From an uncultured Methanobrevibacter sp. (GTDB lineage Archaea; Methanobacteriota; Methanobacteria; Methanobacteriales; Methanobacteriaceae): a stretch of 42,597 nucleotides of DNA. The translations under genes were made by a program, and so were the position numbers. Under the pieces are notes generated by a model, which saw only the letters and a program-made list of their open reading frames with translations, was not told where the DNA came from and did not search any database. How positions within the stretch are numbered: position 1 is the first letter of the stretch; every line of letters starts with the position of its first letter. Shown piece after piece: positions 6,135 through 35,213 of this stretch. The stretch spans positions 1-42,597 of the forward strand of contig CADBPS010000120.1 of assembly GCA_902796575.1 (NCBI GenBank), written 5' to 3'.

Positions 6135-7394
6135 TCATCTATTTTGAAATGATTTTAAAAGCCTACTTCTAAAGATAACCAATAATATCAGAATAATACC
6201 CACAACAGTTTGGATACTACCCAAAATATTTAAAACATTCTCGTCAACAGGTAAATCCCATGGAGGCGACGAACGATCACCTGGAAGTGAATTATAATAA
6301 ACACCAACAGCTTTTGAATCTTCTTTTACATTGATATCTTTAGGTTCAACATGGTCAACACCCATCAGTAAACCATTGTTAATACCTTTATTGATTGAAC
6401 CTGCAATAGCTGACGCATCATATCCATATTTATTTACTGATGCTTCGACAATTTCTTTGGTGGTTGAGGCAACACCTGCTTTACCACTACCGTAGACAGA
6501 AACACTGACTGCATCTTCACTTACTGTAATCGCATTACCTAGGGCCTCATAAGCATATACAACCTTTAAATCGCCGTTACACATAGGACATTTATCATAA
6601 TTATCAGCAGTAGGGTAACCTACACCCCATCCGCAGTTGTCACAAGTTTTTGAATAAGGGTCATCCATAGGAAAACCAGTTTCATTCATATCCTCCGGAG
6701 TGAACATGTCCGAAGAAGATAAACCTGAAACCAAATTAACCCCACCACCACCGTATTTTTCACCGGAATCACGGGCAACTTCACCCATAGCTTCTGAAAG
6801 AATAGTGGTTGCAGGATAACCATCCCTAATCATCTTACCAATGTTCATTGCTGTTTCTTTACGAACACCATCTGCAGTACCGTATAACGGATTTCCAGCA
6901 GTGTTTCTTAAGTGAATAATAGCTCCTTTTTGACCCGGCTCCAGTGTAGCGACACCACTGGTATATGGAGTAACAGTGATTGAATTGTCAGCATCACTTA
7001 CAGTAATAACATATGCATTAAATGAACCTCCAACTGAAGCTCCAATATATGGACCTCCAACAACCAGACGAGCCCCATCGTAGCCACCTGCCAAGGATGC
7101 AGCTGAAGCCGCTGAAGCATTATTTTCAAGATTAGAAACTGCATCTACAATAGAATCTAACCTGGTATCCGAACTACCGGTACCCCCTGAGAGAACTGCA
7201 AAATGATGTTCTTTTGACATCAGGAATGTCGACTGAAACATATTTTCAGCAAAAGACATACTTCCAGCAGCTGCACCGTTAGGGTCTTTACCTGTAGGAT
7301 CAGTAATAACAATAATGTTACAGGTAGCTGCGACACTATTCATGGTCAATAATAATATAATAAAAGAAACGATTATTAAGCTTGATTTCTTCAA
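6135..7394 (-). CDS. exported, C-terminally anchored protein with CxxC pair; unknown function
   Basis: A signal peptide (about residues 1-23, ending SVAA) and a C-terminal membrane helix (about 391-410) followed by Arg/Lys imply a large outward-facing domain of about 365 residues. The ectodomain is rich in Gly, Ala and Ser and contains a possible zinc ribbon, CDNC ... CPMC, near residue 250. The start codon is TTG. GAGGGATG, which includes the upstream gene's TGA, precedes it, and the two genes are separated by 3 bases, so translation is probably coupled. I do not recognise the family. Its place downstream of cell-wall genes suggests an envelope role (inference). Confidence 0.7.
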   Translation of the reverse strand: MKKSSLIIVSFIILLLTMNSVAATCNIIVITDPTGKDPNGAAAGSMSFAENMFQSTFLMSKEHHFAVLSGGTGSSDTRLDSIVDAVSNLENNASAASAASLAGGYDGARLVVGGPYIGASVGGSFNAYVITVSDADNSITVTPYTSGVATLEPGQKGAIIHLRNTAGNPLYGTADGVRKETAMNIGKMIRDGYPATTILSEAMGEVARDSGEKYGGGGVNLVSGLSSSDMFTPEDMNETGFPMDDPYSKTCDNCGWGVGYPTADNYDKCPMCNGDLKVVYAYEALGNAITVSEDAVSVSVYGSGKAGVASTTKEIVEASVNKYGYDASAIAGSINKGINNGLLMGVDHVEPKDINVKEDSKAVGVYYNSLPGDRSSPPWDLPVDENVLNILGSIQTVVGIILILLVIFRSRLLKSFQNR

Positions 7395-7397
7395 AGT

Positions 7398-7859
7398 TCA
7401 TCCCTCTATTGTTTGATTGTCTTCAGCAACTGGGTGTTCCTCCATCTCTATGGATGAAAAATCCTCAATTACAGTAACAGTGACAATCCCCGTGTTTTTA
7501 TCTACCTGAACATCAGCAGCTGTAATGGGCTGAAGGGAAGTACCGGGAACTGTCGACTCCTTTGTAAATTCCTGCGCCGTTTGTATCGCATCCTTCAGTG
7601 AAACTTCTCTTTTGGAAGTTTTCAAAATATCGCCGTAGATAACACTGCCATCCCTTAAACCGGATTGCATAACATTACCACGGATAGTATCTACAGGAAC
7701 AATATCATTACCTTTAACGATGATTCCTGAAATAGGTACACCATTGTTAATCTCATCAGAAGATGCGAATGCAACATAGGTAATCACACGACCACAAAGA
7801 ATCAAAATAAACGCCAATAATAGTATAATTAATGTGTCTCTTCTAATCTTAATAAACAT
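7398..7859 (-). CDS. membrane-anchored extracytoplasmic protein, unknown function
   Basis: One N-terminal hydrophobic segment (about residues 10-30, containing a Cys) is followed by about 120 outward-facing residues. The segment GIIVKGNDIVPVDTIRGNV looks loosely like the opening of a POTRA-type fold, but this is weak. The ATG at 7859 has GAGG 8-9 bases upstream. It is translated just ahead of, and nearly touching, the larger exported protein, so the two probably act together. It is 250 bases downstream of the pMurE-like gene on the same strand, with its own TATA-like AT tract near 7930-7940. Confidence 0.6.
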   Translation of the reverse strand: MFIKIRRDTLIILLLAFILILCGRVITYVAFASSDEINNGVPISGIIVKGNDIVPVDTIRGNVMQSGLRDGSVIYGDILKTSKREVSLKDAIQTAQEFTKESTVPGTSLQPITAADVQVDKNTGIVTVTVIEDFSSIEMEEHPVAEDNQTIEG

Positions 7860-8109
7860 GTTATTATCCTCATTGATTCATGTCCTTCAAAAAAGAACAA
7901 GTTATCAATTAATAATATTTGGTTAATATTATATTTAAATTTATCAATATGAGACTTAGTTGAAAATTTGCAAAAAAGAGTTTTTTATGCTTAAAAAGCA
8001 ATTTTAAGTCAGATTTATTTTATATCAAATAGTATTTTGCCATATTTTAATTTATAATTATTGAATATAACAATTTAATCAAAAGAAAGTATATAAATTT
8101 TATAAAGCA

Positions 8110-28663: not shown

Positions 28664-29368
28664 TTATTTTTCCTTTAAAATTGTGTTAGCTAATTTTAAA
28701 TCATAGGGGTAAGTTACTTTAATATTCGTTATATCCCCGTCAACAAGATGTACATCCTCACCCTTAAGTACAAATATTTTACATGCATCTGTCAGTATAT
28801 TAGTTTCATCATCATTTAAACATAAGATAAGTTCAAAAAGTTTATTTATTTTAAAGCTCTGAGGTGTTTGACCTTGATAAAAATTATCCCTCAATGGAAT
28901 ATTACTGATTAACCTGGAGTCAGTACTTTCAACAATAGTATCAGTAGCAGGAATAACTGTATCACATGCCCCGTACTTCTGTGCAGCATCAATATTATCA
29001 TTGATTATTCTGTGTGTCACAAAAGGTCTGACAGAGTCATGAGTAACAATAATGGAGTCATCATCAATTTCATAATTGCTTCTGATATATGAAAGTGCAT
29101 TTATCAGAGTATCATTTCTGGTTTCTCCACCTTCGATAACAACAATATTTTCAACATCACCAATATATTCCTTAATCAAATCCTGAGTATGATTAATAAA
29201 TGATTTTGGAGATAAAACAATAATTTCATCAAATTTTGAGTTAATAATAAATTTTTCGATAGTATGAATGATAACGGGCTTATCTGCCAAATTTAAAAAT
29301 TGCTTGGGAGTGTCAGTTCCGCCCATTCTGGATCCCACTCCTCCAGCCAATATTGCTGCAAAAATCAT
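28664..29368 (-). CDS. tarI: ribitol-5-phosphate cytidylyltransferase, TarI-like
   Basis: This 234-residue IspD/TarI-family nucleotidyltransferase has the CTP-binding N-terminus ILAGGVGSRMG, PKQF, VIEGGETRNDT, THDSVRPFVTHRII and YQGQTPQSFKIN. The TarI-type extension SVRPFVTHRII and the pairing with a TarJ-like gene favour ribitol-5-phosphate over the methylerythritol phosphate substrate of IspD. Archaea make isoprenoids from mevalonate, so IspD activity would have no use. The product would be CDP-ribitol. GGAG lies upstream of the ATG. It follows a methyltransferase gene after 5 bases. Confidence 0.83.
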   Translation of the reverse strand: MIFAAILAGGVGSRMGGTDTPKQFLNLADKPVIIHTIEKFIINSKFDEIIVLSPKSFINHTQDLIKEYIGDVENIVVIEGGETRNDTLINALSYIRSNYEIDDDSIIVTHDSVRPFVTHRIINDNIDAAQKYGACDTVIPATDTIVESTDSRLISNIPLRDNFYQGQTPQSFKINKLFELILCLNDDETNILTDACKIFVLKGEDVHLVDGDITNIKVTYPYDLKLANTILKEK

Positions 29369-29373
29369 TTTTA

Positions 29374-29976
29374 TTACTCCTTTTGAAAAACAATGAAGAA
29401 ATGTGATTTGCCTTCAGGGATATCTTCACCAATCTCTTCATTTAAATATGTCATTTTAAGATTATGTACTTTAAACACATCTTCAAGTTCTTCAGGTGAG
29501 CTTCTGAATTGTGTTGGAGGACCTTTAGGAACCTCCCACTTTTTATAATCCATAATAGCTATTTTACCATCATTTTTGATTAGACGTGATAATTCAATTA
29601 TTGCTTCATCAATTTTTCTTGATGCCTTAAATCCGTGAAATACATTAACCATCAATATTACATCCAGTGTTCCGTCATCAACTTCAGTAACTTGCCTAGT
29701 AATATCTGCCCGGATATTAACCAGATTTTCAATATTATTTTCCAGTCTGTATTTCTCCATATCCTCTATGGATGCATCATATATATCAACTGCATAAACG
29801 GTACCTGAAGTAATGTATTCGTCAAGGAGTTTGATTGCAATATGCCCGTCACCGCAACCTGCATCCATAATTATTTCTGATCCGTCAAGATTCAATTCAT
29901 CTAAAATTTCATTGTCATCTAAAAAAAATGCACTTGAGAATCCATGTGCTCTGTGTCCATTTGCAGGTATCATCAT
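29374..29976 (-). CDS. class I SAM-dependent methyltransferase upstream of tarIJ
   Basis: Motif I is MDAGCGDGH (about residues 37-45), followed by VYAVDIYDAS with the ribose-binding Asp. The 200-residue length and the general fold fit the UbiE/Methyltransf_11 group. The substrate is unknown. It is the first gene of the methyltransferase-tarI-tarJ set (5-base gap). A role in modifying a ribitol-containing product, or simple co-transcription, are both possible. The start is ATG 29976 or the adjacent ATG 29973, with GGGGAT upstream. Confidence 0.75.
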   Translation of the reverse strand: MMIPANGHRAHGFSSAFFLDDNEILDELNLDGSEIIMDAGCGDGHIAIKLLDEYITSGTVYAVDIYDASIEDMEKYRLENNIENLVNIRADITRQVTEVDDGTLDVILMVNVFHGFKASRKIDEAIIELSRLIKNDGKIAIMDYKKWEVPKGPPTQFRSSPEELEDVFKVHNLKMTYLNEEIGEDIPEGKSHFFIVFQKE

Positions 29977-30205: not shown

Positions 30206-30263
30206 CTTAAGTTACATATAACATAAAAATATTTGTTTTTAAAGTATATATATGTTTCTTAAG
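30206..30263. repeat. imperfect inverted repeat between argJ and the 34-residue gene
   Basis: CTTAAGTTACATATA (30206-30220) and TATATGTTTCTTAAG (30249-30263) are reverse complements at 13 of 15 positions, 28 bases apart. The right arm includes the argJ stop. It could end argJ transcripts, regulate the small basic gene, or both. Confidence 0.45.
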
Positions 30264-31482
30264 TTGTATACTCTGCATTGATTTTTACATAGTCATATGT
30301 TAAATCACAACCCCATCCGGTTGCCTCACCATCACCTAGAGATAAATCAATATTAACTGTAATATTTTTGGACTGCATGACTTCTTCAGCATGTTTTAAA
30401 TTGCTGGTATTATCAAAAGCCAGAATTTCACCATCTTTTACAAGATCAACGTTATCCTTATCATCAGAAATAGTTATAGTTATTATATCTGGGTTTAATT
30501 CACACCCAGAGTAGCCGACAGCCGATACAATTCTGCCCCAGTTAGGGTCTCCACCAAAGACAGCCGATTTGAATAACGGAGAAGTAATGATTGATTTAAC
30601 AGCAAGTTTAGCATCATCTTCATCTTTAGCACCGACAACATTAGCTTCGATGAATTTGGATGCTCCTTCACCATCCCGAGCCATTTTTTTTGCAAGGTTA
30701 ATACATAACTGATTTAAGGCATTTTGAAAATTAACATCAATTTCACCATCACATGCAGCATCGACATCTGACGCACCATTAGCCAACATCAGACATGTAT
30801 CATTGGTACTTTCATCACCGTCAACAACAACCATGTTGAAGCTTAAATCACAGGCTGTCCTAATGGCTTTATTGATGGATGATGAATCCATAACTGCATC
30901 AGTTACTATGAATGCCAGCATTGTTGCCATATTAGGTGCAATCATACCACTTCCCTTACATATTCCGGCAATCCTAACAACTTCACCAGTAGTTAATGTT
31001 ACTTCCAAAGCCTCTTCTTTTGGAAAAGTGTCTGTAGTCATTATTGCTTCAGCAGCTGCAAGAGAATTATCTGCATCACATCCAAGCTTTGAAATTGATT
31101 CATGAGCAACCTTTGAAATAATATCCATTGGCATTTCACGTCCAATAACACCAGTTGAGCAGATTGCAATTTCATTATCAGGCACATTCAAATCTTTTGA
31201 CAATAATTCAACTAAAGATTCGCAGTCTTTGACACCCTGTTCACCAGTAAAACAATTAGCATTACCACTGTTTACAAAAATAGCTGATAGCAAACCGTTT
31301 TTAACTACATTCTTACTAAATGTAACCGGAGCCGCCACTACTTTATTGGATGTAAAAACACCGGAAGCAGTACTTCCAGGTGCATATATTATACTTACAC
31401 CATATTTTCCTTCACGACCACCAGATACTTTTAAATTTTCTATATTGGAAAATCCTCCAGATAATTCTTTAATATAATCCAT
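30259..31482 (-). CDS. argJ: glutamate N-acetyltransferase / ornithine acetyltransferase
   Basis: ArgJ cycles the acetyl group from N-acetylornithine back to glutamate in arginine synthesis. It is an N-terminal-nucleophile enzyme that cleaves itself: the site is within KGSGMIAPNMATMLAF (about residues 176-191), where the Thr of A-T-M-L becomes the new N-terminus. Other family motifs are VNSGNANCFTG, DGDESTNDT and GGDPNWGRI. I choose the ATG at 31482 (MDYIKELS), preceded by GTGAT; a GTG at 31491 lies in that site. It follows the small repeat-bearing membrane protein gene within about 12 bases, so arginine synthesis is transcriptionally tied to the nuclease/cyclase operon. Confidence 0.93.
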   Translation of the reverse strand: MDYIKELSGGFSNIENLKVSGGREGKYGVSIIYAPGSTASGVFTSNKVVAAPVTFSKNVVKNGLLSAIFVNSGNANCFTGEQGVKDCESLVELLSKDLNVPDNEIAICSTGVIGREMPMDIISKVAHESISKLGCDADNSLAAAEAIMTTDTFPKEEALEVTLTTGEVVRIAGICKGSGMIAPNMATMLAFIVTDAVMDSSSINKAIRTACDLSFNMVVVDGDESTNDTCLMLANGASDVDAACDGEIDVNFQNALNQLCINLAKKMARDGEGASKFIEANVVGAKDEDDAKLAVKSIITSPLFKSAVFGGDPNWGRIVSAVGYSGCELNPDIITITISDDKDNVDLVKDGEILAFDNTSNLKHAEEVMQSKNITVNIDLSLGDGEATGWGCDLTYDYVKINAEYTT

Positions 31483-31494
31483 AACAATCACGAA

Positions 31495-31818
31495 CTAATA
31501 CATATACTCTTCTTCTTGCCAGGCTTCCTCCTGTAGGGCTTCCTCCTGTAGGGCTTCCTCCTGTAGGGCTTCCTCCTGCAGGGTCGAAGGATCGTTATAA
31601 TCCACGGCATCCAATCTTTCATCATAAACGGTATCGTTAACCTCACTCAAATTAGATGTCATTTCAACAGTAACATTTTCAACATGAGATGTATTTGTAT
31701 CATTAACAACCTCATGTTCTCCCATACTAGTCATAATTCCAACAGCCGAACCAATAACAAATGCAATAAGTGCAAATACCATTAGTATAGCTATTTTTCC
31801 TTCGCTTACCTTTCGCAT
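31495..31818 (-). CDS. small membrane-anchored protein with LQEEA repeats
   Basis: The 107 residues comprise a short basic N-terminus, one transmembrane helix (about 9-31) and an outward-facing acidic tail with several N-x-S/T sites. It ends in four tandem LQEEA-type pentapeptides. The pentapeptides are encoded by a 15-bp DNA repeat, so copy number could change without frameshift. No family is recognised. It lies between the cyclase-like gene (23-base gap) and argJ (about 12-base gap). A structural or surface role is possible. Confidence 0.6.
   Translation of the reverse strand: MRKVSEGKIAILMVFALIAFVIGSAVGIMTSMGEHEVVNDTNTSHVENVTVEMTSNLSEVNDTVYDERLDAVDYNDPSTLQEEALQEEALQEEALQEEAWQEEEYMY
31522..31581. 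repeat. four tandem 15-bp repeats inside the small membrane protein gene
   Basis: The unit GGCTTCCTCCTGTAG occurs four times head to tail; the last copy has one change (GCAG in place of GTAG). The period is a multiple of three and encodes LQEEA on the minus strand. Near-identity at the DNA level shows recent expansion. Confidence 0.9.
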
Positions 31819-31841
31819 GATTAAATTCTCTTTTAAATTAA

Positions 31842-33044
31842 TTAAGCAATAAAAGCATAAATCAAAACAAATATTATAGTTACAAAACTAAATATTCCTA
31901 ATCCCAATACACATAGCAAATATGTGATTATAAATACAAATGCAAAAATTCCTATTAACTTTTGCTTTTCATTTTCAAATAAGTTAATTAAAGTACGAGT
32001 AAATTCTGATGGTACATTATATGCATATAATCCGTTAGCCAATTCAAAAACAACCAGTGACAGTGGAGAAACAGAAGAAATGCTGTCAACAAGTTGAGCT
32101 CTTTCACCAGCTTCACGTCGAGTTTTTCCAATACCTGCACGTATTTTAGCACCATTATCCAAGGCAAACCATGCAGCATCAAGACCTGCACGAATAGCTA
32201 AATCTTTAGACGGGAAACTAGCAATAAAATCATCCCCACCTTCTCGGTATCCCTCAAGCTGTCCGCCACATTCGCTTTCAATAAAGTACTTTATATCACT
32301 CATCAAATCAACCAACTGATTCTTGCCGTACTTCTGAGTATAGTTAGTTGAATCAATTAAATCTACAAATAAATAATTTTTAATTTCAGATGGTCGGGAT
32401 TGAGCCAATTTAAATGGTTCATCGAAAACAAGTGCATACTCCCCACCAAGTTTTGTAAAAGCGACACCTGGAAAATTGCCTAAAGTTTTACGATAATTAA
32501 TTGATCTTTCAATTGAAGCCGCACCAGTCATTCCAACAGCAGAAATAACTTCAACATCCCTTTCATAACCAATACCAATTAATTCAACAGCCACCCTAAT
32601 AGCATCATTTTTACTCAGCATTTTGGCAACAAGTTCAGTTGAACTTTTTTCGATGATTTCCCCTTTTTCGTTTTCAATAATTTTGACAAAAATATTAATT
32701 AAATTAGATGGATTTGGAAGTTCAACATAAAAATAACGGTCACTACCCATAACGATATTACTTACAAGCGCATATTCTTCGATTTTATCCTCTGCAGATT
32801 GAATTTCATGAAATGTATACTTTTCGGGAAAATTATCGCCACCAACATCCCTAATAAGATTTTCCTTAATTGTTTCTGAATTAATATCTGCCTTTTTAAG
32901 CTCAAACAGGATAGTTTGAGTGTAATTGAACAGTTCTACATATTCATTCTGTACCGAATCTGTCGGGAAAAATCTGGTTCCAACACTGATAGGTGTGAGT
33001 TTGGTAGTCAGTTTAATGACTGTTGCAGATAAACTGTTAACCAT
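31842..33044 (-). CDS. membrane-anchored GGDEF/nucleotide-cyclase-like protein (RxGGDDF)
   Basis: This is a 400-residue protein. Its N-terminal ~215 residues match no family I know. Residues about 222-330 form a nucleotide-cyclase/GGDEF-like palm: the strand FVDLIDST with Asp228 and Asp231, then REGGDDF (267-273). Asp228 and Asp272 are 44 residues apart, the spacing of the two metal-binding Asp residues in class III cyclases; RxGGDDF is closest to GGDEF and Cas10 palms. The class III transition-state Asn/Arg pair is not evident. Two C-terminal helices (about 362-400) anchor it in the membrane. It overlaps the NYN nuclease gene by 8 bases. Product and activity unknown. Confidence 0.65.
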   Translation of the reverse strand: MVNSLSATVIKLTTKLTPISVGTRFFPTDSVQNEYVELFNYTQTILFELKKADINSETIKENLIRDVGGDNFPEKYTFHEIQSAEDKIEEYALVSNIVMGSDRYFYVELPNPSNLINIFVKIIENEKGEIIEKSSTELVAKMLSKNDAIRVAVELIGIGYERDVEVISAVGMTGAASIERSINYRKTLGNFPGVAFTKLGGEYALVFDEPFKLAQSRPSEIKNYLFVDLIDSTNYTQKYGKNQLVDLMSDIKYFIESECGGQLEGYREGGDDFIASFPSKDLAIRAGLDAAWFALDNGAKIRAGIGKTRREAGERAQLVDSISSVSPLSLVVFELANGLYAYNVPSEFTRTLINLFENEKQKLIGIFAFVFIITYLLCVLGLGIFSFVTIIFVLIYAFIA

Positions 33045-34062
33045 CTAATTTTCCCCCTTTTTCTAATTCTATTTCGAATTCACCTGATTTTTCCAAAAGA
33101 ACATCAGGTTTAACTGAAACAAATGGGAACTTCCATGATCCTAGTCTGCCTGCAATTGTACTTGCAATATTTCTGGAATTCTTTTTAATGAAAATCTCGT
33201 CATTTGCATTGACACGGACCAAAATGTTATAAGGGGCATTTTGAGTTACTTCATCAGCCAGCAGAATGTTTAATTCAAAAGTTCCCTGTTTAGTGAATAA
33301 ATCATTACGAACTGCAATCAGTGGTTTTTTCTCGAGTCCTAATCTGTCTGCAACAGTAACGGAAATGTTACCTGCATTTTTAACAGTTACCTTATAATCC
33401 TTAGGATGAACCAGAACAAAAATTACATAAGGTGCAGCTACTTCAACATCATCAACCATGTCTAAAATCTTATTGAACATTGGTATTTTGGAAAAAACAC
33501 TTTCAACTTTAGAATTAATATTTGTATCATCATCAATACGGATAATAGCCTGTTTGGCAATGTTTAATGGCGAAATCTTTAAGCCTTCCTTTCCTGTGTA
33601 GACTTCCCATTTTCTAAAGTTTAACTGTTTGATAATCTCATCAGAGATATTCTGTAAAATAGTTTTATTACGCTTAGGTTTTTTAGATCTTCCAAAAAAC
33701 AACCTGTTATTTTTAATAGTAAATGGAATTCTAAATGAATTAATATTTTTAAATTCATCAGCGTAATCCCTAAATTTATCGTTGGATAAAATTTTAGCCT
33801 TTTCATTATAAGCGATATCTAAAATAAAATGATCAGCATCATTACCTGGAGGAACTTCTTCTACATTATCATTTTCTAGAAGTTTATCAAATTCTTCCTT
33901 GTTATCAATCTCATGACGAAGTGATGCATCGGCTATAATAACAAATTCATCTTCACTCTCTTCAAGAGCTTTAACAGCAGCTAAAATATTTACCATTTGA
34001 GGCTGAGATTCCTCATTCTTGATATGGTACGCAACATTAGAAGCATCTACAACGACTTTCAT
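33037..34062 (-). CDS. NYN/Zc3h12a (Regnase)-like ribonuclease with duplicated C-terminal domain
   Basis: Residues 1 to about 140 look like the PIN-fold NYN domain of Regnase-type ribonucleases: VVDASNVAY (Asp6, Asn9), VIIADAS (Asp45), GNDADHFI (Asp75, Asp77) and LSNDKFRDY (Asp95, Asp99), an acidic set consistent with metal-dependent RNA cleavage. Residues about 201-258 and 267-324 are an internal duplication (PYVIFVLVHP/PYNILVRVNA; VADRLGLEKKP/IAGRLGSWKFP). I choose the ATG at 34062 (MKVVVDAS) behind GGTGAT. Upstream is the phosphodiesterase gene (54-base gap); downstream is the overlapping cyclase-like gene. Substrate unknown. Confidence 0.75.
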   Translation of the reverse strand: MKVVVDASNVAYHIKNEESQPQMVNILAAVKALEESEDEFVIIADASLRHEIDNKEEFDKLLENDNVEEVPPGNDADHFILDIAYNEKAKILSNDKFRDYADEFKNINSFRIPFTIKNNRLFFGRSKKPKRNKTILQNISDEIIKQLNFRKWEVYTGKEGLKISPLNIAKQAIIRIDDDTNINSKVESVFSKIPMFNKILDMVDDVEVAAPYVIFVLVHPKDYKVTVKNAGNISVTVADRLGLEKKPLIAVRNDLFTKQGTFELNILLADEVTQNAPYNILVRVNANDEIFIKKNSRNIASTIAGRLGSWKFPFVSVKPDVLLEKSGEFEIELEKGGKLDG

Positions 34063-34116
34063 AATAATCACCAATAACCTAATTCAATCATTTGTATATA
34101 TTAATAATCCGAATAT

Positions 34117-34857
34117 TTAATATTTTCTTTGGAACTTACCAAACAAAAACTTCTCTCCACCAACATGGTTAAGAAAAACCTCAATTTCCTTGTCATTTAT
34201 ATTATAAATAATATATGAATTACCAATTTTACCTCTCAGCTTATTAGAACAAAGAGAACCTGAATTAACAACAATTGTATCGTTAATTTTCCAGATATTT
34301 GGAACATGTTTGTGACCGCACAGTACCAAATCAACTTCGTGAGTAGTTAAAGTCTTTAAAATATCTCCTGCATCCGATAAAACATTACGTTCACGGCCAG
34401 TATTAGGTATCGGAATAACATGATGGTGAAGTGCTACAATGGAAAATCGCTCAGCAATGACACAGTCATCCAACTGATGTTCCATCCACAGATGTTGAGG
34501 AAGACCAATATGGCCTCTGTTTTCATCAGGAATACTAGAGTCAAGACCAATTACCGTAAATTCATTATCTTTTGTTAGTTTCCAGCTTCTCTCACCGACC
34601 AATTCCTCAAAACTCTGATTACCTAAATTACGGGAATCATGATTACCTGGAATGGCGAATAATGGAGATTTAAACATATTCAAATATTCCATCGCTTTAA
34701 CAAATTCACCATAATAACCCCTATTGGTAATATCGCCCGTTAAAATAATCATATCTGGTGCCAATGCATTAATCTCTTTAATAGCATCCATCAGAACAGA
34801 TTCACTAAATGAACCACTGCCGATATGCAGATCCGAAATGTGTACTATAACTGTCAT
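34117..34857 (-). CDS. calcineurin-like metallophosphoesterase (CpdA/Icc-like)
   Basis: All metal-ligand motifs of the class are present: SDLHIG (Asp9, His11), TGDI (Asp42), PGNHD (Asn72, His73), ALHHHV (near 144) and CGHKHVP. The overall layout is that of the CpdA/Icc group, some of which hydrolyse cyclic nucleotides, though others act on different phosphoesters. The length (246 residues) fits. It lies 5 bases after the NAC gene and 54 bases before the NYN nuclease gene, two genes from a cyclase-like protein, so a nucleotide-signal-removing role is a reasonable inference but not shown. Confidence 0.8.
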   Translation of the reverse strand: MTVIVHISDLHIGSGSFSESVLMDAIKEINALAPDMIILTGDITNRGYYGEFVKAMEYLNMFKSPLFAIPGNHDSRNLGNQSFEELVGERSWKLTKDNEFTVIGLDSSIPDENRGHIGLPQHLWMEHQLDDCVIAERFSIVALHHHVIPIPNTGRERNVLSDAGDILKTLTTHEVDLVLCGHKHVPNIWKINDTIVVNSGSLCSNKLRGKIGNSYIIYNINDKEIEVFLNHVGGEKFLFGKFQRKY

Positions 34858-34862
34858 AATAT

Positions 34863-35213
34863 CTACAATGTTAATTTCATAATAGCTTCAGCCAAATCCC
34901 CTTTACAGTCAATTAATGCCTGTTCAGCTTCTTCTTTGGAAACTTTAGCCTGATTGGCAACCATTTCAATATCATCATCAGGAATTTCAATTTCATATTC
35001 TATTTCAACTTCACGGGCAGTACCGTCAATCTGATAGGTTTCCTGACCGCCAACATTCATCACACTGACACTGGGATTATCAATAATTAACTCCTTATCA
35101 TCGAAACGAATAATAACCTCTATTGCACCATCAAGATTGTCCATTTTCATTCCCATTTTCTTCATTTGCCTTTCCATCTGTTTCATTTGTTTTCTGTTCA
35201 TTCCAGGTATCAT
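34863..35213 (-). CDS. nac: nascent polypeptide-associated complex protein (archaeal NAC)
   Basis: Archaeal NAC is a homodimeric ribosome-associated chaperone. The N-terminus MIPGMNRKQMKQMERQMKKMG is Met/Lys-rich, the NAC beta-barrel (about 30-75) follows, and a UBA domain closes the protein (VSKEEAEQALIDCKGDLAEAI, about 90-111). I place the start at the ATG at 35213, about 8 bases after GGAGGATATT; a TTG 15 bases upstream falls within that site. It is the first gene of the operon that continues into the phosphodiesterase, NYN nuclease and cyclase-like genes, which puts a ribosome factor at the head of the set. Confidence 0.92.
   Translation of the reverse strand: MIPGMNRKQMKQMERQMKKMGMKMDNLDGAIEVIIRFDDKELIIDNPSVSVMNVGGQETYQIDGTAREVEIEYEIEIPDDDIEMVANQAKVSKEEAEQALIDCKGDLAEAIMKLTL

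What the first reader, a model, noticed from the sequence alone, without database searches (positions are those of the whole stretch)
30259..35213. Operon linking NAC, a CpdA-like phosphodiesterase, a Regnase-like NYN nuclease and a membrane GGDDF cyclase-like protein
Seen: six genes on one strand with gaps of 5, 54, an 8-base overlap, 23 and about 12 bases: nac, calcineurin-like phosphoesterase, NYN-domain ribonuclease, membrane-anchored protein with RxGGDDF (Asp pair 44 residues apart), a repeat-bearing membrane protein, then argJ. Known: GGDEF/Cas10-type palms make cyclic or linear nucleotide signals, CpdA-like enzymes can destroy them, and Regnase-like NYN domains cut RNA. Inference: a signal-maker, signal-remover and RNA-cutting effector arranged together look like a nucleotide-controlled RNA-decay or stress/defence circuit, with a ribosome factor at the head. 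I know of no described system with this layout. It may also be housekeeping in Methanobacteriales.
Basis: partly seen in the sequence, partly recalled or inferred. Interest (0 to 1): 0.85.

Follow-up and report, generated by a model that had tools for sequence, protein, structure and literature searches.

The report
Archaeal cyclase-like protein with RNase partner
Nearly every genome examined from one large group of methane-making archaea carries, side by side, a membrane protein that looks like a nucleotide-making cyclase and an RNA-cutting protein; the pair has been listed before but never studied, and it looks like a core cell function, perhaps linking a small nucleotide signal to RNA turnover, rather than a virus-defence system.

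Summary
Six same-strand genes lie at the stated positions and gaps. The GGDDF protein carries two tandem palm domains (D1, D2) and a C-terminal membrane hairpin. By fold its nearest solved relatives are class III adenylyl cyclases, then GTP cyclohydrolase III; GGDEF and Cas10 entries are not among the best matches. The metal Asp and the GGDD motif are intact in 107/107 homologues.

It is single-copy in 147/151 Methanobacteriales genomes and lay directly behind nyn in all 103 loci checked. Outside the phylum only one genus (inferred Methanopyrus) has it, again adjacent, but there the partner lacks the NYN nuclease domain. What stays linked is the nuclease's C-terminal half, a duplicated domain that is probably tandem KH-like (RNA-binding).

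The CpdA-like gene is looser: unlinked in several genomes and not found in one complete genome that keeps the pair. argJ is incidental. Single copy, vertical inheritance, no viral relatives and no PADLOC match for the pair argue against defence.

Lupo et al. 2025 already listed the pair as "cluster D" (NYN + nucleotide cyclase), specific to pseudomurein archaea and uncharacterised. Best reading: a lineage-wide housekeeping module in which a membrane-anchored pseudo-heterodimeric cyclase-like enzyme works with an RNA-binding ribonuclease. Its product is unknown.

The parts
31842..33044 (-). cyc: membrane-anchored tandem-palm, cyclase-like protein (400 aa)
   Evidence: ORF; 147/151 Methanobacteriales genomes; AF2 model pLDDT 78, pTM 0.70; class III adenylyl cyclase fold
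32424..32738 (-). cyc domain D1 (residues ~103-207): degenerate palm; no GGDD, but invariant K145, E179, R180, K198, E202
   Evidence: hhalign D1 vs D2 probability 96.8%, E 2e-10; conservation; AF2 secondary structure
32016..32378 (-). cyc domain D2 (residues ~223-343): palm with D228 and R267-E-G-G-D271-D272
   Evidence: D228, D271 and D272 in 107/107; Rv1900c profile match E 0.0014
32226..32240 (-). GGDDF motif codons (residues 269-273)
   Evidence: sequence; GGDD invariant
31848..31964 (-). C-terminal transmembrane hairpin (residues ~361-399)
   Evidence: two helices in the model; hydropathy up to 2.86 over 19 residues; Lupo et al. report >1 TM for the orthologous group
33037..34062 (-). 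nyn: NYN ribonuclease with duplicated C-terminal domain (341 aa); overlaps cyc by 8 bp
   Evidence: PF11977; Regnase/ZC3H12C PIN fold; adjacency in 103/103 loci
33655..34059 (-). NYN (Regnase-type PIN) catalytic domain, acidic residues D6, D45, D77, D95
   Evidence: each residue kept in 103 or 104 of 104 homologues, the exception for D6 being an unread (X) stretch
33061..33432 (-). duplicated C-terminal domain, probable tandem KH-like RNA-binding module; the part kept beside cyc in the outgroup genus
   Evidence: repeat 1 vs repeat 2 hhalign 96.4%, E 1.2e-9; weak NusA (tandem KH) similarity; helix-turn-helix between strands
34117..34857 (-). calcineurin-like metallophosphoesterase (CpdA/Icc-type fold), metal ligands intact
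   Evidence: PF00149; 66/66 ligands conserved; linkage lost in several genomes
34863..35213 (-). nac: archaeal nascent polypeptide-associated complex protein (general housekeeping), head of the ancestral four-gene operon
   Evidence: TIGR00264; synteny
31495..31818 (-). small TM protein with acidic EEALQ repeats (fast-evolving neighbour, probably not part of the module)
   Evidence: low identity and patchy presence
30259..31482 (-). argJ (arginine biosynthesis), incidental neighbour
   Evidence: TIGR00120; cyc-argJ distance varies from 298 to 7510 nt; unlinked in G151

Best explanation
nyn and cyc form a lineage-wide housekeeping module of Methanobacteria and the Methanopyrus-like genus, inherited vertically. 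SHOWN by sequence and model: Cyc is one chain with two tandem palm domains of the class III nucleotidyl cyclase / GGDEF / Cas10 / GCH III superfamily and a C-terminal membrane hairpin. Only the second palm (D2) keeps the metal Asp and the GGDD motif. The first (D1) has no GGDD but has its own set of invariant residues. This is the layout expected of a single-chain pseudo-heterodimer with one active site at the D1/D2 interface, as in mammalian adenylyl cyclases. Nyn is a Regnase-type ribonuclease fused to a duplicated, probably KH-like domain, and the duplicated domain is the part never seen separated from Cyc. INFERRED: Cyc uses an NTP in a two-metal reaction at the membrane (cyclic mononucleotide, or di/oligonucleotide), and it and Nyn act in one pathway, with the KH-like part binding RNA and either reporting RNA to Cyc or being recruited to and tuned by it. 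The NYN domain, where present, then cuts RNA. The phosphoesterase may clear a product in some species but is not obligatory.
For: Single-copy presence in 147/151 genomes of the order, with the three >=85% complete genomes lacking cyc being the same three lacking nyn. Adjacency on the same strand in 103/103 loci, 96 with a gap of at most 5 nt, mostly an 8-nt overlap. In 200 and 249 archaeal relatives, the cyc profile and the nyn C-terminal profile hit the same set (54 Methanobacteria and the three genomes of one outgroup genus), apart from a few marginal hits; in the outgroup the genes are again within 1 nt. D228, G269-D272 and K280 in 107/107; D1 K145, E179, R180, K198, E202 in 107/107. AF2 palm topology; Foldseek to Rv1900c 9.5e-6, Ma1120 2.4e-5, GCH III 1.1e-4. 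D1/D2 duplication E 2e-10. D2 and D1 are the most conserved segments, the TM part the least. Nyn: Regnase fold 3.2e-7, acids conserved. No other class III cyclase (PF00211) was found in Methanobacteria, although cAMP has been reported in Methanothermobacter (Leichtling 1986, cited in PMC8646023).
Against: No biochemical data were found for any member. D1 and D2 could bind a nucleotide without catalysis. Best Foldseek TM-scores are modest (0.5-0.57 of the target) and residues 94-101 of the model are low-confidence. Adjacency does not prove a shared pathway. The NYN domain is missing from the outgroup partner, so a direct cyclase-to-nuclease signal need not be the ancestral role. The KH assignment of the C-terminal domain is only suggestive (hhalign 41%; about 0.15 such hits expected over the genomes searched). 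The active-site interface was not inspected in coordinates.
Confidence: 0.45

Rival explanations
1. Cyc is a catalytically silent or slow nucleotide sensor: a membrane anchor whose palm pair binds GTP/ATP and holds or gates the KH-NYN ribonuclease, a functional parallel to the membrane-bound, KH-containing RNase Y of bacteria.
For: Membrane hairpin and invariant, probably KH-like partner; no signalling domains and no dedicated effector or receptor around the pair; D1 already shows loss of the metal motif.
Against: The metal motif D228 / RxGGDD is kept over 107 sequences including the far outgroup (R267 is K in two), stronger than nucleotide binding alone usually demands.
Confidence: 0.25
2. 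Cyc is an RNA- or nucleotide-metabolic enzyme (GCH III-like hydrolase or Thg1-like nucleotidyltransferase) rather than a messenger synthase; with the KH-NYN protein it processes or repairs an RNA class.
For: GCH III is among the fold matches (2qv6, 1.1e-4); RNA-type partners.
Against: Profile comparison with GCH III is essentially nil (hhalign probability 4.9%), no PF05165 match, and a true GCH III gene lies elsewhere in the genome. Class III cyclases score better than GCH III.
Confidence: 0.2
3. The six-gene stretch is a nucleotide-controlled defence or stress circuit (maker, remover, RNA-cutting effector).
For: Component types resemble those of CBASS/type III CRISPR-like circuits; phosphoesterase distantly matches anti-phage phosphoesterase models.
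Against: Near-universal, single-copy, vertically inherited (pairwise distances correlate 0.75-0.88 with each other); no viral relatives of cyc; nyn and cyc match nothing in PADLOC; remover not obligatory; nuclease domain not obligatory.
Confidence: 0.04
4. The pair serves pseudomurein wall or envelope physiology, since its range equals that of pseudomurein archaea.
For: Lupo et al. 2025 recovered it as pseudomurein-archaea-specific cluster D; range consistent here; membrane location.
Against: No link to wall gene clusters A/B is reported; the range equals one clade, so any lineage-specific trait fits; the authors themselves set cluster D aside; RNA-type domains.
Confidence: 0.06

Closest known systems
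Cluster D (OG0001213 NYN + OG0001214 nucleotide cyclase), Lupo et al. 2025, PMC11915815
   Same: Very probably the same gene pair: Zc3h12a-like NYN ribonuclease and multi-TM nucleotide cyclase, clustered in synteny, specific to Methanobacteriales and Methanopyrales among the archaea compared.
   Different: They annotated it by InterPro only and set it aside. Not reported in the text read: the tandem palm / pseudo-heterodimer, the KH-like domain, the missing NYN in the Methanopyrus-like partner, the four-gene operon, or the residue conservation.
Class III adenylyl cyclases (Rv1900c, Ma1120)
   Same: Palm fold, first metal Asp in a D-I-V-x-S-S/T context (outgroup: LDIVGSS), GD motif 43 residues on.
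   Different: Two palms in one chain with only one metal site; GGDD instead of x-G-D-x; membrane hairpin after, not before, the catalytic part; fails the PF00211 model.
GGDEF diguanylate cyclases and Cas10/mCpol polymerases
   Same: RxGGD(D/E)F/L motif shared literally with GGDEF (RxGGDEF) and Cas10 (GGDD), from knowledge of these families; same superfamily fold.
   Different: Fails the GGDEF model (whole genome); best solved folds are class III cyclases; no CRISPR, CARF or PilZ context; universal, not patchy.
GTP cyclohydrolase III (MJ0145, PF05165)
   Same: Archaeal protein of the same fold superfamily with a GGDN motif and an AGIG strand.
   Different: Profile comparison negative; a separate true GCH III exists in the same genome.
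KHNYN / Regnase family ribonucleases
   Same: Regnase-type NYN domain, and (probably) a di-KH module in one chain; human KHNYN has an amino-terminal extended di-KH plus NYN (PMC11997328).
   Different: Reversed domain order, archaeal, KH loops degenerate, no zinc finger; likely an independent fusion.

Membership tests
Class III nucleotidyl cyclase | Palm fold with two metal-binding Asp in canonical places | tested here: met
Class III nucleotidyl cyclase | Match to the family profile (PF00211) | tested here: not met
   no PF00211 match or in own genome
Class III nucleotidyl cyclase | Transition-state Asn/Arg and base-selecting Lys/Asp supplied by the partner subunit | tested here: inconclusive
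   D1 R180, E179, K198 invariant, but equivalence to the AC residues was not established without coordinates
Class III nucleotidyl cyclase | Makes 3',5'-cNMP | not testable with these tools
   needs assay
GGDEF diguanylate cyclase | PF00990 match and GG(D/E)EF | tested here: not met
   motif is GGDD[F/L/V]
GTP cyclohydrolase III | PF05165 profile similarity | tested here: not met
   hhalign 4.9%
Cas10 / mCpol | GGDD palm | tested here: met
   GGDD in 107/107
Cas10 / mCpol | CRISPR, CARF or OptS-type neighbours, patchy defence distribution | tested here: not met
NYN/Zc3h12a (Regnase) ribonuclease | PF11977 above cut-off with conserved acids and PIN fold | tested here: met
KH domain (C-terminal part of nyn) | strand-helix-turn-helix-strand core, with sequence similarity to known KH proteins | tested here: inconclusive
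   order of elements in AF2 model (partly low confidence); NusA similarity 18-20 bits against a shuffled maximum of 11.6; no Pfam KH match
CpdA cAMP phosphodiesterase | NF008359 equivalog cut-off 225 bits | tested here: not met
   64 bits
Anti-phage defence system | PADLOC model match or patchy, mobile distribution | tested here: not met

The most novel reading that the evidence does not exclude
A non-CRISPR, RNA-gated nucleotide messenger system serving everyday physiology: the KH-like partner senses RNA and switches on the membrane-bound GGDD pseudo-heterodimer to make a cyclic or oligo-nucleotide, which in Methanobacteria feeds back on the fused NYN ribonuclease. It could be the unidentified source of the cAMP reported in Methanothermobacter.
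Probability: 0.15. Interest if true: 0.9.

Novelty: new variant of a known kind. Interest (0 to 1): 0.6.

Why it matters
Archaeal nucleotide signalling is poorly mapped: PMC8646023 names only cAMP, c-di-AMP and cOA as previously reported in archaea. Here is a near-universal, single-copy cyclase-like gene with an intact active site in a lineage where no other class III cyclase was found, inseparable from an RNA-binding/RNase partner and restricted to the pseudomurein methanogens, which include common gut and rumen methane producers. A biochemical assay on a stable thermophilic orthologue would settle it.

Tried and rejected
Defence reading: rejected on near-universality, vertical inheritance, and absence from viral contigs and PADLOC. 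GGDEF and GCH III membership: rejected by profiles. Identification with 'MK0296', the archaeal GGDEF relative of PMC2904730 and PMC1183210: not verified. From its genome position the outgroup gene (about 101-103 kb) does not look like MK0296, so I do not claim it. Dedicated promoter for nyn: TATA-like boxes are enriched (68% vs 39% in shuffles) but not at a fixed distance, so inconclusive. Weak hits of the Nyn C-terminal profile in other archaea: two related NusA proteins (kept as a lead), one unrelated protein of a different kind and one frame with a stop (dropped). PDB search with the C-terminal domain profile: nothing convincing. DUF2286 match of one member (E 0.005): not followed.
Full report
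OBSERVATION. The GGDDF protein has none in Pfam, NCBIfam or PADLOC. The Asp pair is D228 and D271/D272, 43 or 44 residues apart.

DISTRIBUTION. The cyclase-like gene (cyc) is found in 147 of 151 Methanobacteriales genomes, as a single gene (one draft shows it in two fragments). Among genomes at least 85% complete, profiles of cyc and nyn each miss the same three drafts and both hit the one further class member, G151 (1,243,342-base contig; inferred Methanothermus fervidus). A search over 200 archaeal relatives found cyc elsewhere only in one outgroup genus of three genomes, E 1e-29 to 1e-33; G174 has a 1,694,969-base contig, which I take to be Methanopyrus kandleri. Two further hits (E 0.005-0.008) are marginal and carry stops. 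No viral contig was found to encode a relative.

NEIGHBOURHOOD. In 103 of 103 loci nyn precedes cyc on the same strand, 96 with a gap of 5 nt or less, 81 with exactly the 8-nt overlap. nac and the phosphoesterase usually precede them. In G151 all four genes overlap or abut, so nac-phosphoesterase-nyn-cyc is probably ancestral to the class. argJ is elsewhere in G151, at 298-7510 nt in other loci, and is incidental. In the outgroup genus only nyn-cyc remains adjacent; the phosphoesterase orthologue lies elsewhere. It is also unlinked in G118 and G121, and in G023, a single-contig 99%-complete genome with both nyn and cyc, no orthologue passes 1e-10. The 'remover' is therefore not a fixed part.

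THE PARTNER. The outgroup partner is 241 aa and aligns only to the C-terminal half of Nyn; no PF11977 match exists in the outgroup genomes. The C-terminal profile hits exactly the genomes that have cyc (54 + 3 of 249), apart from four marginal hits. So the element inseparable from Cyc is the C-terminal domain, not the nuclease. That domain is an internal duplication (hhalign 96.4%, E 1.2e-9). Each unit is modelled as strand-helix-turn-helix-strand, although the model is weak there. Its best outside match is archaeal NusA (TIGR01952), a tandem-KH protein, at 18-20 bits against a maximum of 11.6 in 3000 shuffles and 8.4 for the next background proteins of the loci held. hhalign gives only 41%. 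I treat tandem KH-like as probable, not shown. The N-terminal half is a Regnase/ZC3H12C-type NYN domain with its acids kept in practically all of 104 homologues.

THE CYCLASE-LIKE PROTEIN. The AF2 model (pLDDT 78, pTM 0.70) shows an N-terminal alpha/beta part, two tandem palms and a C-terminal helical hairpin that hydropathy marks as membrane-spanning. Foldseek ranks class III adenylyl cyclases first (Rv1900c 9.5e-6; Ma1120 2.4e-5), with GCH III of M. jannaschii at 1.1e-4. The family profile picks out Rv1900c by sequence (E 0.0014). D1 and D2 are homologous (E 2e-10). D2 keeps D228, S232, GGDD and K280 in 107/107. D1 has no GGDD but has invariant K145, G171, T173, A175-A176, E179-R180, K198, G200 and E202. 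One metal site plus one specialised partner half is the arrangement of heterodimeric adenylyl cyclases (general knowledge); that D1 supplies catalytic side chains is inference. GCH III is excluded as the family (hhalign 4.9%; the genome has a real one), and GGDEF is excluded by profile.

FUNCTION. Distances of all five neighbouring proteins correlate at 0.75-0.88, which is what vertical inheritance gives. With near-universality and single copy, this points to a housekeeping role. No other class III cyclase was found in Methanobacteria, while cAMP has been reported in Methanothermobacter (cited in PMC8646023). The most economical reading is a membrane-anchored two-metal nucleotide enzyme working with an RNA-binding protein that in Methanobacteria also carries an RNase. 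The reaction product and the direction of control are unknown.

PRIOR WORK. Lupo et al. 2025 (PMC11915815) list cluster D: OG0001213 'Zc3h12a-like ribonuclease NYN domain' and OG0001214 'Nucleotide cyclase' (>1 TM), specific to pseudomurein archaea, judged probably unrelated to wall synthesis and not studied. Galperin 2005 (PMC1183210) stated that archaea lack AC3 and diguanylate cyclases apart from highly diverged, probably inactive ORFs. Anantharaman 2010 (PMC2904730) noted a small archaeal GGDEF-like family typified by MK0296; whether it is this family is unverified.

VERDICT. New here are the pseudo-heterodimer architecture, the invariant active site, the probable KH-like domain as the true constant partner, and the dispensability of nuclease domain and phosphoesterase.

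Noticed in passing
31522-31583: 15-bp in-frame tandem repeat (4.1 copies, 97% matches) encoding EEALQ in a small single-TM protein between cyc and argJ; homologues in other genera are short and poorly conserved.
   Followed up: partly
L106:9514-10239, L107:9893-10618, L108 (C-terminal part of 6974-7936): In the inferred Methanopyrus genomes the nyn orthologue consists of the C-terminal domain alone, and no NYN (PF11977) protein is detected anywhere in those genomes.
   Followed up: yes
G023 (single contig, 99% complete); locus L091: This genome keeps nyn and cyc but has no hit for the phosphoesterase orthologue at 1e-10, and nac is not near the pair.
   Followed up: partly
28664-29976: Downstream of argJ on the same strand: an IspD/TarI-like cytidylyltransferase (28664-29368, by eye) and a class I methyltransferase (29374-29976, by eye); the methyltransferase is duplicated in tandem in many Methanobrevibacter loci.
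   Followed up: no
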